From positions 1 to 23,708 of the forward strand of contig CALJFL010000003.1 of the NCBI GenBank assembly GCA_938074135.1: 23,708 bases of DNA, given 5' to 3'. Below the pieces are notes generated by a model. The model ran no database searches. It was given only the letters and a program-made list of their open reading frames with translations, and was not told the origin of the DNA. Source of the DNA: an uncultured Halieaceae bacterium (GTDB lineage: Bacteria; Pseudomonadota; Gammaproteobacteria; Pseudomonadales; Halieaceae). Position numbers and translations under genes: made by a program. Within the stretch, counting starts at the first letter, position 1. Each line of letters begins with the position of its first letter. Of this stretch, positions 334 to 4,548 are shown piece after piece.

Positions 334-562
334 CTACCCGTCGCAGGGGTAGTGGTCCTTGATGATGTCGTAGAGCGACAGGGACAATTCGCTACCGTCG
401 TCAGTTGCCCGTGCGCTGAGTTCGCCGGCCAGTGTCTCCACCACGTCAGCGCGGGAGGTCGACTCGGGCAGGCAAAAATGAGCCAGCGCTGTTGCCGGCA
501 ATGCAGACCAGCATTATGGCGCTGCGGGCACCGTGTTTAACGCGTGTCACTAGCTTGCTCAT
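334..562 (-). pseudogene. Small Rap1a/Tai-like exported protein, one apparent frameshift
   Basis: The start ATG (562-560) overlaps the purK stop as ATGA and has AAGGA eight bases upstream, so translation should be coupled to purK. The first frame gives a basic then hydrophobic leader (MSKLVTRVKHGARSAIML...) but stops at 446-448. The next frame carries FCLPE, then DVVETLAGEL, and ends YPCDG with stop at 334-336. That layout, an FCxP start and a terminal (F/Y)PC about 40 residues later, resembles the Rap1a/Tai immunity-protein fold with its cysteine pair. Removing one base from the GCCGGC at about 494-499 joins the frames into 75 residues, with a textbook signal peptide ending ALA before HFCLP. 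Either a sequencing error or a genuine recent mutation. The start is well supported; the family is moderately sure. Neighbours show no toxin, so an immunity role is not implied. Confidence 0.6.
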
Positions 563-1779
563 GCTCGTTGTCCTTGCCGGTTATCGAAGTCTGGCGTGCC
601 CTGGTAAGGCGCGCGGTCAGGTATTTGCTCGCAGTATTCCTCGAGGAACGTCAGCGCAGGTGAGCGCGGCTCCCATAATAATTGACGAATACCGGCAAGA
701 ATCTTTCGCAGATCTGCATGGCTGTGGGCCGAGGCACCGAGGTGTCCCAGCTTGCGGCCTTCTCTGGCTTGCTTGTTGTACCAGTGCAGGGATACCTGGG
801 CTGGCAATTGCGGCAGGTCGGGAGCGCGTTCCCCGTGCCCGAGAATATTGACAATACCGTGGTACCGATCCGGGTTTGCGCGCCCCAGGGCCATGCCGAG
901 GATAGCTCTTAAATGGTTTTCAAACTGGCTGGTCAGATTGCCCTGCAGCGTCCAATGGCCGCTGTTATGAACCCGCGGCGCCAGTTCATTAACCAATAGT
1001 TCACCGTCAACCAGAAAGCATTCCATGGCCAGCACACCCACGTAATTCAGTCCCTCCAGCAAGGCGACGATGTTGGCCTTGCCGCTTGCTGCGATGCTGT
1101 CGGGTAATGTGTCAAAGGGGGCCAGTGACGACGTGAGTACGCCCTTGCTGTGGCGATTTTCTGTCGCTGGATATACGTGGATCTCGCCGGTAGCCGATCG
1201 CGCGGCTATCAGGGATAGCTCGCAGTCAAAGTCCATAAATTGCTCGACCAGCCAGTCACCGGTTTGGCGTTCAGCGAGGAAGGCGCGCAACTCGAAGTCG
1301 CTGTGGATCCGCCATTGTGACTTGCCGTCATAGCCCTCGCTGGCCGCCTTTATTACCAGTGGATATCCCAGCGATTGGGTCGCGCTCTTGAGTTCCTCTG
1401 CACAGCGCGCCTCCCGATACGGAGTTGCGGCGATAGCAAGGGACTCCAGCAGTTTTTTCTCGCGAATACGGTGTTGGCACTGGTGCACCGCGTCTGCGTC
1501 GGGGAAGACGCTAACGTGATCAGCCAGTGCGCGCAGCAGGCCAGTATCAACACTTTCTCTTTCGACCGTAACGACGTCCGGGTTACCCAGTGCCTTCAAC
1601 AGGGCCTGTGGGTTGACCGGCTCGCGGGTTGACCAGTGGGCGATCTGTCCCAGTCCGTCGACGCATTCCGTGGACTCGTTATCGCAAGCCAGGAAGCTGA
1701 ACCGTATACCCATTGGCCAGCCTGCCAGGGCCAGCATTCTGGCCAGTTGTCCACAACCTACTATAGCAACCTTATTCAT
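559..1779 (-). CDS. purK: N5-carboxyaminoimidazole ribonucleotide synthase PurK
   Basis: ATP-grasp enzyme of cytosolic purine synthesis. It uses ATP and bicarbonate to carboxylate 5-aminoimidazole ribonucleotide (AIR) to N5-CAIR, which PurE then rearranges. The N-terminus has the dinucleotide-like loop VAIVGCGQLARML (residues 4-16). The ATP-grasp core shows Lys144 and the loop EGYDGKSQ (148-155), and the substrate/metal-binding stretch NELAPRVHNSGHWT lies at 264-277. At 406 residues it is slightly longer than the usual 350-390. Its ATG overlaps the purE stop (ATGA, 1776-1779), so the pair is translationally coupled. It lies downstream of an SbtA-type bicarbonate symporter in the same operon, which would supply its co-substrate. 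Assignment is secure. Confidence 0.97.
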   Translation of the reverse strand: MNKVAIVGCGQLARMLALAGWPMGIRFSFLACDNESTECVDGLGQIAHWSTREPVNPQALLKALGNPDVVTVERESVDTGLLRALADHVSVFPDADAVHQCQHRIREKKLLESLAIAATPYREARCAEELKSATQSLGYPLVIKAASEGYDGKSQWRIHSDFELRAFLAERQTGDWLVEQFMDFDCELSLIAARSATGEIHVYPATENRHSKGVLTSSLAPFDTLPDSIAASGKANIVALLEGLNYVGVLAMECFLVDGELLVNELAPRVHNSGHWTLQGNLTSQFENHLRAILGMALGRANPDRYHGIVNILGHGERAPDLPQLPAQVSLHWYNKQAREGRKLGHLGASAHSHADLRKILAGIRQLLWEPRSPALTFLEEYCEQIPDRAPYQGTPDFDNRQGQRA

Positions 1780-2276
1780 GTGACAGCCTCCGTTACGTTA
1801 TCAGTTAAAGCCTGGCGCCAGCCGCCCAGGCGACCAGCGAGTTCCCGGTCAGACAGCGCCAGTATTTGAGCCGCCATCAGGCCGGCATTGGCGGCGCCAC
1901 CAGTGCCGATGGCCTGCGTGGCCACCGCCACACCTTTGGGCATCTGCACGATGGACAGCAGGCTGTCCATGCCATTGAGTGCCTTGCTGGTGACGGGAAC
2001 CGCTATGACCGGCACCAGTGTTAATGCTGCGACCATCCCGGGCAGATGGGCGGAACCGCCGGCGCCGGCAATAATCGCCTGAATGCCGCGTTCTGCGGCG
2101 CAGCGGGCGAAGTCGTATAGCCGCGTAGGCGTGCGGTGCGCAGAGACGATGCGAGTCTCAAAAGGCACGTCCAGTTCAGTGAGAAGGTCTGCTGCATGCT
2201 GCATAGTCGGCCAGTCCGATTGTGAGCCCATGATGATGCTGACCAGGGGCGGCGAGCTTGCGTTGGATGTCGTCAT
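1776..2276 (-). CDS. purE: N5-CAIR mutase PurE (class I)
   Basis: Moves the carboxyl group of N5-CAIR from N5 to C4 to give CAIR; it works directly after PurK. Class I PurE motifs are present: MGSQSDW (residues 16-22), SAHRTP (45-50, with the catalytic His47) and GAGGSAHLPGM (71-81). Length 166 residues is typical. I chose the ATG at 2276, which starts MTTSNASSPP, with GAGG about 11 bases upstream. An in-frame ATG at 2315 would add 13 residues and run into the end of the symporter gene, so it is less likely. The symporter gene stops 13 bases before the chosen start, and purK overlaps its end by four bases, which points to one transcript. Confidence 0.95.
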   Translation of the reverse strand: MTTSNASSPPLVSIIMGSQSDWPTMQHAADLLTELDVPFETRIVSAHRTPTRLYDFARCAAERGIQAIIAGAGGSAHLPGMVAALTLVPVIAVPVTSKALNGMDSLLSIVQMPKGVAVATQAIGTGGAANAGLMAAQILALSDRELAGRLGGWRQALTDNVTEAVT

Positions 2277-2289
2277 TACGCGTTTTTCC

Positions 2290-3234: not shown

Positions 3235-3459
3235 TTACGCCTGTCGACTTGAGCCGATGCTATTGAAGCGTCGGGCGGTAACAGTGCGGGCGGCGTGTTT
3301 GATACGGTTGCCAACTCTGCTGGCTACAGCAAGGCCACTGATCCCACAGCCGACAGCGAACAGTCCCCAATCTACGATATCGGCAGAAGCCAATGCGGCA
3401 CCGAGCACGACGATGCAGATACCAGTGGCGAGGCTGAAGTAGAATTGACTGTCGTGCAT
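3235..3459 (-). CDS. Small two-helix membrane protein upstream of the symporter
   Basis: Seventy-four residues, no family recognised. The start is well supported: GGAGG stands six bases before the ATG. Two hydrophobic stretches are visible, about residues 6-26 (FYFSLATGICIVVLGAAL) and 30-48 (DWGLFAVGCGISGLAVAS), followed by a basic C-terminal tail with several Arg/Lys, which should face the cytoplasm. It ends six bases before the symporter start, so it is the first gene of the sbtA-like/purE/purK operon. Position suggests a partner or regulatory subunit of the transporter, but it does not resemble the soluble PII-like SbtB. Function unknown. Confidence 0.8.
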   Translation of the reverse strand: MHDSQFYFSLATGICIVVLGAALASADIVDWGLFAVGCGISGLAVASRVGNRIKHAARTVTARRFNSIGSSRQA

Positions 3460-3606
3460 GGGAACCCTCCGGGGAGTCAGTAGTTGACGATGGGGAGGAT
3501 GATTGCAGAAGTATTAAATAGATAAAAATAGATATTATTTAATTTCTAAATAGATGATAGGCTATTAAAAAGTAATCCTAGATTTGTTGACCGCAGGAGT
3601 TGCGTC
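3460..3606. promoter_or_regulatory. Divergent promoter region with three AAATAGAT repeats
   Basis: This gap separates the LysR gene (rightward) from the bicarbonate/purine operon (leftward). Three direct copies of AAATAGAT begin at 3516, 3526 and 3548, spaced 10 and 22 bp, about one and two helical turns, so they would lie on one face of the DNA. Overlapping them is an inverted repeat, ATTAAATA (3513-3520) with TATTTAAT (3536-3543). LysR proteins normally bind such dyads between divergent promoters, so this is the likely site for the adjacent regulator. The rightward ribosome site AGGAG lies seven bases before the LysR ATG. Confidence 0.6.
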
Positions 3607-4548
3607 ATGAGTTCCCGAATCCATGCCCGTGTGGGCACTATCAGGCAGCTTGAGATTCTGCTGTGTGTCTATGATCTGGGCAGCATCAAGTTGGCGTCAG
3701 AGCAGTTGCACCTGACCCAGCCAACGGTATCCATGCAATTGAAGAAGTTGTCAGAGGCTATTGGTACACCGCTTTACGATCGTCAGGGTAAATCCAGACG
3801 CTTCACCGATGCCGGAGAAGCTGTCGTTGCCACGGCGCGGGAGGTGCTGGACAGCTTATCTCGCCTCGAAATGGAATTGTCTGACCTGCGAGGGCTGAAG
3901 GCGGGGACACTCAACCTGGCGGTGGTAACGACTTCCAAGTACTTTATTCCGCATCTGTTGGGGCCTTTCTGTAAGCGCTATCCTGACGTCGATATCAACT
4001 TCAAGGTGGGTAACCGGCAGAATATTATCGAGCGGCTGCAATCTGGCCACGATGACTTCTACGTTTTCAGCCACCCCCCCGAGGAAGGAGACTTCGAAGT
4101 CACGGAGTTCCTGCCCAATCCGCTGGTTGCGATTGCCCCTGTTGATCACCCACTGGCAGGTAAATCGCGCATAGACATCGCCGAGATCGCCAATGAACCG
4201 TTTCTTGTGCGCGAGCACGGCTCAGGCAGCCGCCATGCGATCGAGCGGCATCTGCGCCGGCTGGGTGCATCAGTATCAGTGCGGATGACTATCGAGAGTA
4301 ACGAGGCGATCAAGCATGCGGTGATGTCAGGGCTGGGGATATCGATCGTCTCGGCCCATACATTGACGTTTGGTGGCAGCGCCGGTCTGGCGGAGCTCGA
4401 TATCAAGCAGTTGCCTATCGATTCACGCTGGTACCTGGTCCGACAGCGCGAGCGTCGTTTGTCGTTGATCGCCAAAACGTTTCTGAATTACCTGCAGACT
4501 GAAGGCCAGGAGAGCATGATCAGTGAGCTACGCCGCACCACCGGCTAG
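3607..4548 (+). CDS. LysR regulator of CbbR/CmpR type
   Basis: A 313-residue LysR-type transcription factor. The N-terminal winged helix-turn-helix covers about residues 12-70 (RQLEILLCVYDLGSIKLASE, then HLTQPTVSMQLKKL). The effector domain begins near 97 with GTLNLAVVTTSKYFIPHLLG and continues RYPDVDINFKVGNR, which is the pattern of CbbR/CmpR/RbcR proteins that control carbon fixation and bicarbonate uptake genes. Later motifs HPLAGK and FLVREHGSGSRHAIERHL fit the same subgroup. AGGAG is seven bases upstream of the ATG. It diverges from the SbtA-like operon, which it most likely controls, and probably its own gene too. No RuBisCO genes are visible, so its role here is likely bicarbonate supply for biosynthesis. 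Effector unknown. Confidence 0.9.
   Translation: MSSRIHARVGTIRQLEILLCVYDLGSIKLASEQLHLTQPTVSMQLKKLSEAIGTPLYDRQGKSRRFTDAGEAVVATAREVLDSLSRLEMELSDLRGLKAGTLNLAVVTTSKYFIPHLLGPFCKRYPDVDINFKVGNRQNIIERLQSGHDDFYVFSHPPEEGDFEVTEFLPNPLVAIAPVDHPLAGKSRIDIAEIANEPFLVREHGSGSRHAIERHLRRLGASVSVRMTIESNEAIKHAVMSGLGISIVSAHTLTFGGSAGLAELDIKQLPIDSRWYLVRQRERRLSLIAKTFLNYLQTEGQESMISELRRTTG

What the first reader, a model, noticed from the sequence alone, without database searches (positions are those of the whole stretch)
334..4548. A bicarbonate importer sits in one operon with the bicarbonate-using purine enzyme
An SbtA-family symporter gene is followed 13 bases later by purE, which overlaps purK. PurK fixes bicarbonate onto AIR. 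A LysR protein of the CbbR/CmpR type, the group that controls carbon-concentrating genes, is divergent. The sequence therefore suggests a small supply chain: sense low inorganic carbon, import bicarbonate, spend it in purine synthesis. No RuBisCO or carboxysome gene is seen, so this looks like an anaplerotic or biosynthetic use of SbtA in a heterotroph. I do not know of a description of this link.
Basis: partly seen in the sequence, partly recalled or inferred. Interest (0 to 1): 0.75.

Follow-up and report, generated by a model that had tools for sequence, protein, structure and literature searches.

The report
Bicarbonate importer wired to purine synthesis
In a group of bacteria that do not fix carbon, the gene for a likely bicarbonate importer sits in one operon with the two enzymes that put bicarbonate into purines, which suggests these cells take up inorganic carbon to build DNA and RNA when CO2 is scarce.

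Summary
The pairing is conserved: in one GTDB order, 32 of 80 checked genomes with an Sbt gene have purE within 6 kb, always on the same strand. It recurs in several gene orders on separate branches of the SbtA tree. It is rare elsewhere: none in 52 further Sbt loci of a phylum sample. RuBisCO is absent from 47 of 48 such genomes. The window's branch has its own PurK clade, a shared LysR-type operator found almost only before sbtA, no SbtB, and in its place a conserved two-helix membrane protein. Sixteen genomes also keep a second PurE near dprA and tsaC; the seven genomes examined with only that PurE lack purK. Best reading: a low-inorganic-carbon module that imports bicarbonate and feeds the ATP- and bicarbonate-using route of AIR carboxylation. 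Substrate, inducer and exclusivity to purines are untested; some members keep sbtA without purK.

The parts
3607..4548 (+). lysR: CbbR/CcmR/CmpR-like LysR-type regulator, divergent from the operon
   Evidence: Pfam HTH_1 and LysR_substrate; best solved relatives 5y2v and CmpR
3518..3565 (-). two-part operator: ATAGAT/ATCTAT half (3565-3550) and core ending ATATCTATTTTTATCTAT (3541-3518)
   Evidence: core exact at 3518-3535, chance mean 0.01 in the window; conserved in 27 compared gaps; 11 of 13 near-exact copies in 30 genomes lie before sbtA
3235..3459 (-). small ORF, 74 aa, two predicted membrane helices; 6 bp before sbtA
   Evidence: 26 of 27 lysR-sbtA gaps hold one; pN below pS in 7 of 7 pairs; model with two helices, pLDDT 78
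2290..3228 (-). sbtA: Sbt_1 (PF05982) transporter, 312 aa
   Evidence: 355 bits; Synechocystis SbtA 7cye is the only solved match
1776..2276 (-). purE: class I-type N5-CAIR mutase, 166 aa
   Evidence: TIGR01162 204.5 bits; solved class I relatives 3kuu, 1u11, 1qcz (the class is recalled except where the entry is named mutase)
559..1779 (-). purK: N5-CAIR synthase, bicarbonate- and ATP-using, 406 aa
   Evidence: TIGR01161 318.8 bits, cut-off 318.4; solved relative 3aw8 256 bits
482..499 (-). terminator-like stem-loop after purK (weak)
   Evidence: 1 found in the region against 3.4 in shuffles, so no more than a pattern match

Best explanation
smORF-sbtA-purE-purK is one operon under a divergent CbbR/CcmR-like LysR. 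When inorganic carbon is short, the LysR switches the operon on at the two-part ATAGAT/ATCTAT operator. SbtA imports bicarbonate with sodium. PurK uses bicarbonate and ATP to make N5-CAIR, and class I PurE turns it into CAIR, so purine synthesis no longer hangs on dissolved CO2. The two-helix protein modulates SbtA where relatives use SbtB. In lineages that also keep the PurK-less PurE2, the cassette is the low-CO2 route beside a CO2-using one. Shown: gene order, conservation, recurrence of the link, operator, small ORF, absence of RuBisCO in relatives, exclusion between 'PurE2 only' and purK. Inferred: substrate, signal, direction of regulation, role of the small protein, use of CO2 by PurE2.
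For: Cassette in 7 of 9 close relatives; 32 of 80 checked Sbt genomes of the order linked, all on one strand; several gene orders, some with a P-II (SbtB-like) gene in the operon; separate places on the SbtA tree; cassette PurK a clade of its own, so importer and PurK travelled together; LysR closest to 5y2v and CmpR; operator conserved and nearly specific to sbtA; RuBisCO in 1 of 48; all 7 genomes with only PurE2 lack purK, all 34 others have one. From papers (passages): PurK uses bicarbonate, and cyanobacterial purK mutants need high CO2 (PMC10880623); Sbt of Thiomicrospira pelophila moves DIC in E. coli and its gene is 280-fold up at low DIC (PMC12628692).
Against: Only S114 and S324 of the four bicarbonate residues are kept (S101, S261); Y140 and S327 are V127 and A264. 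Linkage is not general: 0 of 52 further phylum loci, and 48 of 80 order genomes are unlinked. Within the clade G525, G444 and G630 keep sbtA without purK, and G009, G702, G532 and G672 have purEK elsewhere. Carbonic anhydrase is present in 46 of 48, so bicarbonate can be made inside. No expression, transport or growth data.
Confidence: 0.68

Rival explanations
1. General supply: the operon is a low-carbon response that feeds every bicarbonate user (acetyl-CoA carboxylase, carbamoyl phosphate synthase, anaplerotic carboxylases); purEK is merely co-regulated because it too suffers at low CO2.
For: Three clade members keep sbtA without purK, and two of them, G525 and G630, keep lysR, operator and small ORF. 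Most Sbt genes of the wider samples are not next to purE.
Against: The gene repeatedly found beside Sbt is purEK; but I did not count other carboxylase genes beside Sbt, so this is weak.
Confidence: 0.35
2. The clade transports another anion, and the link to purEK has a different meaning.
For: Two of four bicarbonate residues differ, and the motif SASYIA replaces SSSDIS in 99 of 100 Sbt proteins compared.
Against: The same variant occurs in L084 of G215, which has RuBisCO and a SulP gene beside sbtA-sbtB; PurK is a bicarbonate enzyme; the LysR is of the carbon-response type.
Confidence: 0.07
3. Chance or passive neighbourhood without functional meaning.
For: Within the window's clade the cassette is inherited as a unit, so its members are not independent.
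Against: Recurrence in different gene orders and clades, always on one strand; 3 linked against 0.1 expected in the class sample.
Confidence: 0.03

Closest known systems
Cyanobacterial SbtA-SbtB (and SbtC) low-CO2 bicarbonate uptake
   Same: Same transporter family; low-carbon-type LysR relatives; a small membrane ORF directly upstream of sbtA, as SbtC is (PMC13360264, part 1 of 2 read)
   Different: No RuBisCO in 47 of 48 relatives; no SbtB at 31 clade loci; purEK in the operon; homology of the small ORF to SbtC not tested
Bacterial purE-purK operon
   Same: Same two enzymes, adjacent; in most cassette genomes the only purK
   Different: An importer and a dedicated LysR are added; 16 linked genomes hold a second PurE as well
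MpsAB of Staphylococcus aureus (bicarbonate/DIC supply in a non-autotroph)
   Same: Inorganic-carbon import for biosynthetic carboxylations; the authors name phosphoribosylaminoimidazole carboxylase among the users (PMC6689103, passages)
   Different: Unrelated protein; those passages describe no operon with purEK
mTORC1-SLC4A7 coupling in mammals
   Same: A bicarbonate transporter raised for purine and pyrimidine synthesis (described in PMC10912719, passages)
   Different: Translational control in animals; here an operon
Sbt genes in SAR11 IIIa/LD12
   Same: Sbt gene in heterotrophs (PMC10030771, passages)
   Different: No purEK link is described in the passages read

Membership tests
SbtA / PF05982 Na+-dependent bicarbonate transporters | Pfam Sbt_1 over its cut-off, over the full length | tested here: met
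   355 bits, cut-off 27, profile 2-307 of 308
SbtA / PF05982 Na+-dependent bicarbonate transporters | Bicarbonate residues S114, Y140, S324, S327 of Synechocystis SbtA | tested here: inconclusive
   S101 and S261 kept, V127 and A264 differ (alignment; residues from passages of PMC8352866)
SbtA / PF05982 Na+-dependent bicarbonate transporters | Na+-dependent bicarbonate transport | not testable with these tools
   needs an assay
SbtA-SbtB systems | sbtB (P-II) beside sbtA | tested here: not met
   0 of 31 clade loci by tblastn with three SbtB-like queries
CbbR (NCBIfam NF045990) | score over the curated cut-off | tested here: not met
   245.9 of 450 bits, though the best of 51 families; so CbbR-like, not filed as CbbR
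CcmR/CmpR-type LysR | closest solved relatives are carbon-response LysR proteins | tested here: met
   5y2v 274 bits, CmpR 5z49 197 bits, next other protein 103
CcmR/CmpR-type LysR | binds low-carbon metabolites | not testable with these tools
   needs binding tests
PurE class I and PurK | TIGR01162 and TIGR01161 over cut-off | tested here: met
   204.5 over 149.6; 318.8 over 318.4, a narrow pass
CO2-concentrating mechanism | RuBisCO served by the importer | tested here: not met
   none in the 20 window proteins scanned and in 47 of 48 related genomes; the window's own genome is not held
SbtC | sequence homology to Synechocystis SbtC | not tested
   its sequence was not at hand; only position and membrane helices are alike

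The most novel reading that the evidence does not exclude
Some heterotrophic gammaproteobacteria have a carbon-supply switch for purine synthesis. At high CO2 an ATP-free, PurK-independent PurE (PurE2) carboxylates AIR with CO2. At low CO2 a dedicated LysR turns on a cassette that imports bicarbonate and spends ATP on it through PurK and class I PurE. A new two-helix small protein replaces SbtB as the valve on SbtA. Lineages that had lost PurK regained it together with the importer.
Probability: 0.35. Interest if true: 0.8.

Novelty: new variant of a known kind. Interest (0 to 1): 0.64.

Why it matters
Bicarbonate import by Sbt proteins is studied mostly as a service to RuBisCO. A recurrent operon that ties it to the bicarbonate-using step of purine synthesis, in cells without RuBisCO, would give a concrete reason why heterotrophs carry Sbt genes (reported in SAR11 relatives, PMC10030771, passages). 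It makes the question 'which biosynthetic step limits growth at low CO2' directly testable. It also yields a new small membrane protein, a defined operator, and genomes that appear to hold two AIR-carboxylation routes side by side.

Tried and rejected
Paralogue idea: I first supposed the cassette purEK was a special second copy. It is the only strong purK match (over 300 bits) in 7 of 9 genomes (weaker matches of 158-179 bits I take, from recall, to be purT). Only G003 has a second purK elsewhere; G009 has its single purK away from sbtA.

Class II PurE: I supposed PurE2 was a class II enzyme. Its best solved relative is 3trh (194 bits), while 3rg8, which I recall as the class II PurE of Treponema, has 60. 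So it is class I-like in sequence, and PurK-independent only by gene content.

Carbonic-anhydrase replacement: rejected. Wide conservation beyond these gammaproteobacteria: not found. A larger regulon: no clear further target; the near-exact operator copies outside sbtA are one before the relocated lysR of G546, divergent from a DUF4437 gene, and one inside a gene of G472. The 'backwards' control is of no use, because the reversed pattern overlaps the pattern itself. Two short frames after purK match nothing in the loci held but the window itself.

Papers: ten searches of open-licence PMC papers only. SbtA and purK occur together in 2 papers; the passages read of both describe no joint operon. 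Of the 7 papers with 'bicarbonate transport', purK and operon, I read passages of 4 and saw 3 only as listings. So 'not described' means not found by these searches.
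Full report
What is there. The minus strand of the window carries, in order, a 74-aa ORF (3459-3235), sbtA (3228-2290), purE (2276-1776) and purK (1779-559). The gaps are 6 bp and 13 bp, and purE and purK overlap by 4 bp. A LysR gene (3607-4548) is divergent. Profiles confirm each name: Sbt_1 355 bits, purE 204.5 (cut-off 149.6), purK 318.8 (cut-off 318.4). No promoter- or terminator-like site lies between sbtA and purE; a weak terminator-like site follows purK. 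The window's own genome is not held, so the rest of its gene content is unknown.

Is the pairing conserved? One scan of a species-level genome collection gave 9 loci with close SbtA (56-64% identity). Seven of 9 have sbtA-purE-purK, L003 has sbtA-purK, L009 has sbtA alone; the divergent lysR is present in 8 of 9 (L007 starts 325 bp before sbtA). In an even sample of 369 genomes of the class, 54 have an Sbt gene over the cut-off; 4 of these have purE within 2 kb: the centre G005, G034, G149 and G215. Without the centre that is 3 of 53, against about 0.1 expected. In 390 genomes of the order, 112 have an Sbt match. I checked purE in the 80 best of these 112: 32 have it within 6 kb, all 32 on the same strand, 27 downstream and 5 upstream of sbtA. 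Two of the 32 (G005, G001) were already known. Outside, linkage is rare. A 398-genome phylum sample gave 65 Sbt matches over the cut-off. I read 52 of these loci with roughly 3 kb on each side and none had purE or purK; of the others, all but G005 had been found unlinked in earlier calls (20, 21, 28, 30) or are a fragment of a locus read. So linkage is a feature of certain gammaproteobacteria.

It recurs. Reading the loci gave these orders: lysR<>smORF-sbtA-purE-purK (window type); purE-purK-sbtA-sbtB (L148, L150, L151; with genes between in L149, looser in L157); purK-purE-sbtA-sbtB (L083); sbtA-sbtB-purE-purK (L152-L156); sbtA-purE-purK with a distant sbtA (L082, L159-L161); and looser forms (L084, L158). 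The small extra gene is a P-II protein (PF00543) in all six examples scanned. On a tree of 100 SbtA proteins these orders fall in separate places; well-supported branches force at least 11 changes between linked and unlinked (quick method, SH-aLRT only; L082 and L086 are long branches, and losses count as changes too).

The window's branch is a unit. Its SbtA clade has 31 rows (SH-aLRT 97), 24 of them linked to purK. The PurK proteins of the cassettes are also one clade (24 rows, SH-aLRT 98), which holds the relocated purK of G009 but not the purK of G702, G532 or G672, nor the other purK of G003. So importer and PurK travelled together, and in G003 the cassette PurK is an added copy. In 7 of the 9 first genomes the cassette purK is the only strong match, so these are the cell's ordinary purine enzymes.

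Regulation. Among solved proteins the LysR is closest to 5y2v, named 'Rubisco operon transcriptional regulator', and to CmpR (that 5y2v is NdhR/CcmR is recalled). The 27 lysR-sbtA gaps extracted share a two-part element, ATAGATaattaTCTAT and TAaatAaTATCTATTTTTAtCTAT: 26 of 27 match the second part at 18 or more of 24 positions (L003 at 14), and the first part lies 24 bp upstream in 24 of 27. This is the layout expected of LysR recognition and activation sites (general knowledge). In 30 genomes, 13 sites match the core with at most one mismatch: 11 lie before sbtA, 1 before a lysR that has moved away from the cassette (G546; 47% identical to the window's), 1 inside an unrelated gene. In 3 of the 30 no site with up to two mismatches was found. 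In G468 the lysR (55% identical) has also moved, beside a citrate-synthase and a PEP-mutase-family gene, and has a two-mismatch copy.

A small protein in place of SbtB. SbtB-like P-II genes are found at 0 of 31 loci of the window's clade but at 60 other loci, several of them from the same genome. Between operator and sbtA, 26 of 27 gaps carry a 57-81-aa ORF with two predicted membrane segments (none found in L166). Three members tested have no Pfam family over a cut-off. Its 24 profile hits have no domain and are unnamed or hypothetical. Non-synonymous change is below synonymous in 7 of 7 pairs, though synonymous sites are near saturation. The model shows two helices (pLDDT 78, pTM 0.44). In Synechocystis a small membrane ORF upstream of sbtA, SbtC, restrains SbtA (PMC13360264, a commentary, part 1 of 2 read; the primary paper was not seen). 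The position is alike; homology was not tested.

Two ways to carboxylate AIR. The PurE proteins of these loci fall into two clearly separate groups by score, 23 of them PurE2. PurE2 is near tsaC in 23 of 23 loci and near dprA, at most 2.7 kb away, in 22 of 23. Of 41 genomes searched, all 7 whose only PurE is PurE2 lack purK, and all 34 others have one (Fisher 4e-8; the genomes are related, so this P value is too small). Sixteen genomes hold PurE2 and a linked purE-purK. From papers: PurK uses bicarbonate and ATP, PurE alone needs much CO2, and absence of purK has been tied to CO2-rich conditions (PMC3261824 and PMC10880623, passages). That PurE2 works with CO2 alone is inferred.

Hosts. RuBisCO is absent from 47 of 48 linked or clade genomes; G215 has it. 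Beta-carbonic anhydrase is found in 46 of 48 (only fragments at contig ends in G008 and G402), against 17 of 19 genomes of the order without an Sbt match. So the cassette neither serves RuBisCO, as a rule, nor replaces carbonic anhydrase.

Against the reading. Of the four residues that bind bicarbonate in Synechocystis SbtA (docking and mutants; PMC8352866, passages), two are kept and two are not (alignment). All but one of 100 Sbt proteins compared share the variant motif, including that of G215, which has RuBisCO. G525, G444 and G630 keep the transporter but have no purK, so bicarbonate probably serves other enzymes too. Nothing here measures transport, expression or growth.

Verdict. The importer-to-purine link is best read as a low-carbon supply module in heterotrophs: known parts in an arrangement of which my ten literature searches found no description in the library held.

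Noticed in passing
window 272-287: A perfect copy of the operator palindrome, ATAGATAATTATCTAT (0 expected in shuffles), lies about 270 bp downstream of purK near the left end of the window. It may control a gene beyond the end.
   Followed up: partly
window 337-562 (-): Two short frames after purK (38 aa starting on the purK stop, then 36 aa in another frame) look like a small gene broken by a frame change; no match in the other loci held.
   Followed up: partly
L079 1486-1998 and 22 other loci: PurE2: an orphan class I-like PurE near dprA and tsaC; the seven genomes examined that have only this PurE lack purK.
   Followed up: yes
L084 2001-8638 (G215): A SulP transporter gene, sbtA, a P-II gene, then purE and purK, in a genome with RuBisCO: possibly an autotroph's version of the link.
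   Followed up: partly
L086 (G034): A cyanobacterial-type Sbt (SSSDISGPPTL motif, very long branch) in a gammaproteobacterial genome that has two other Sbt genes.
   Followed up: no
L222 5982-6968 (G546): A DUF4437/cupin gene is divergent from the relocated lysR and shares its exact operator: a possible second target.
   Followed up: partly
window 7691-23699: Acyl-CoA ligases, two Rieske oxygenase alpha subunits, a P450, SDRs and SnoaL-like genes suggest breakdown of a ring compound, perhaps a steroid.
   Followed up: no
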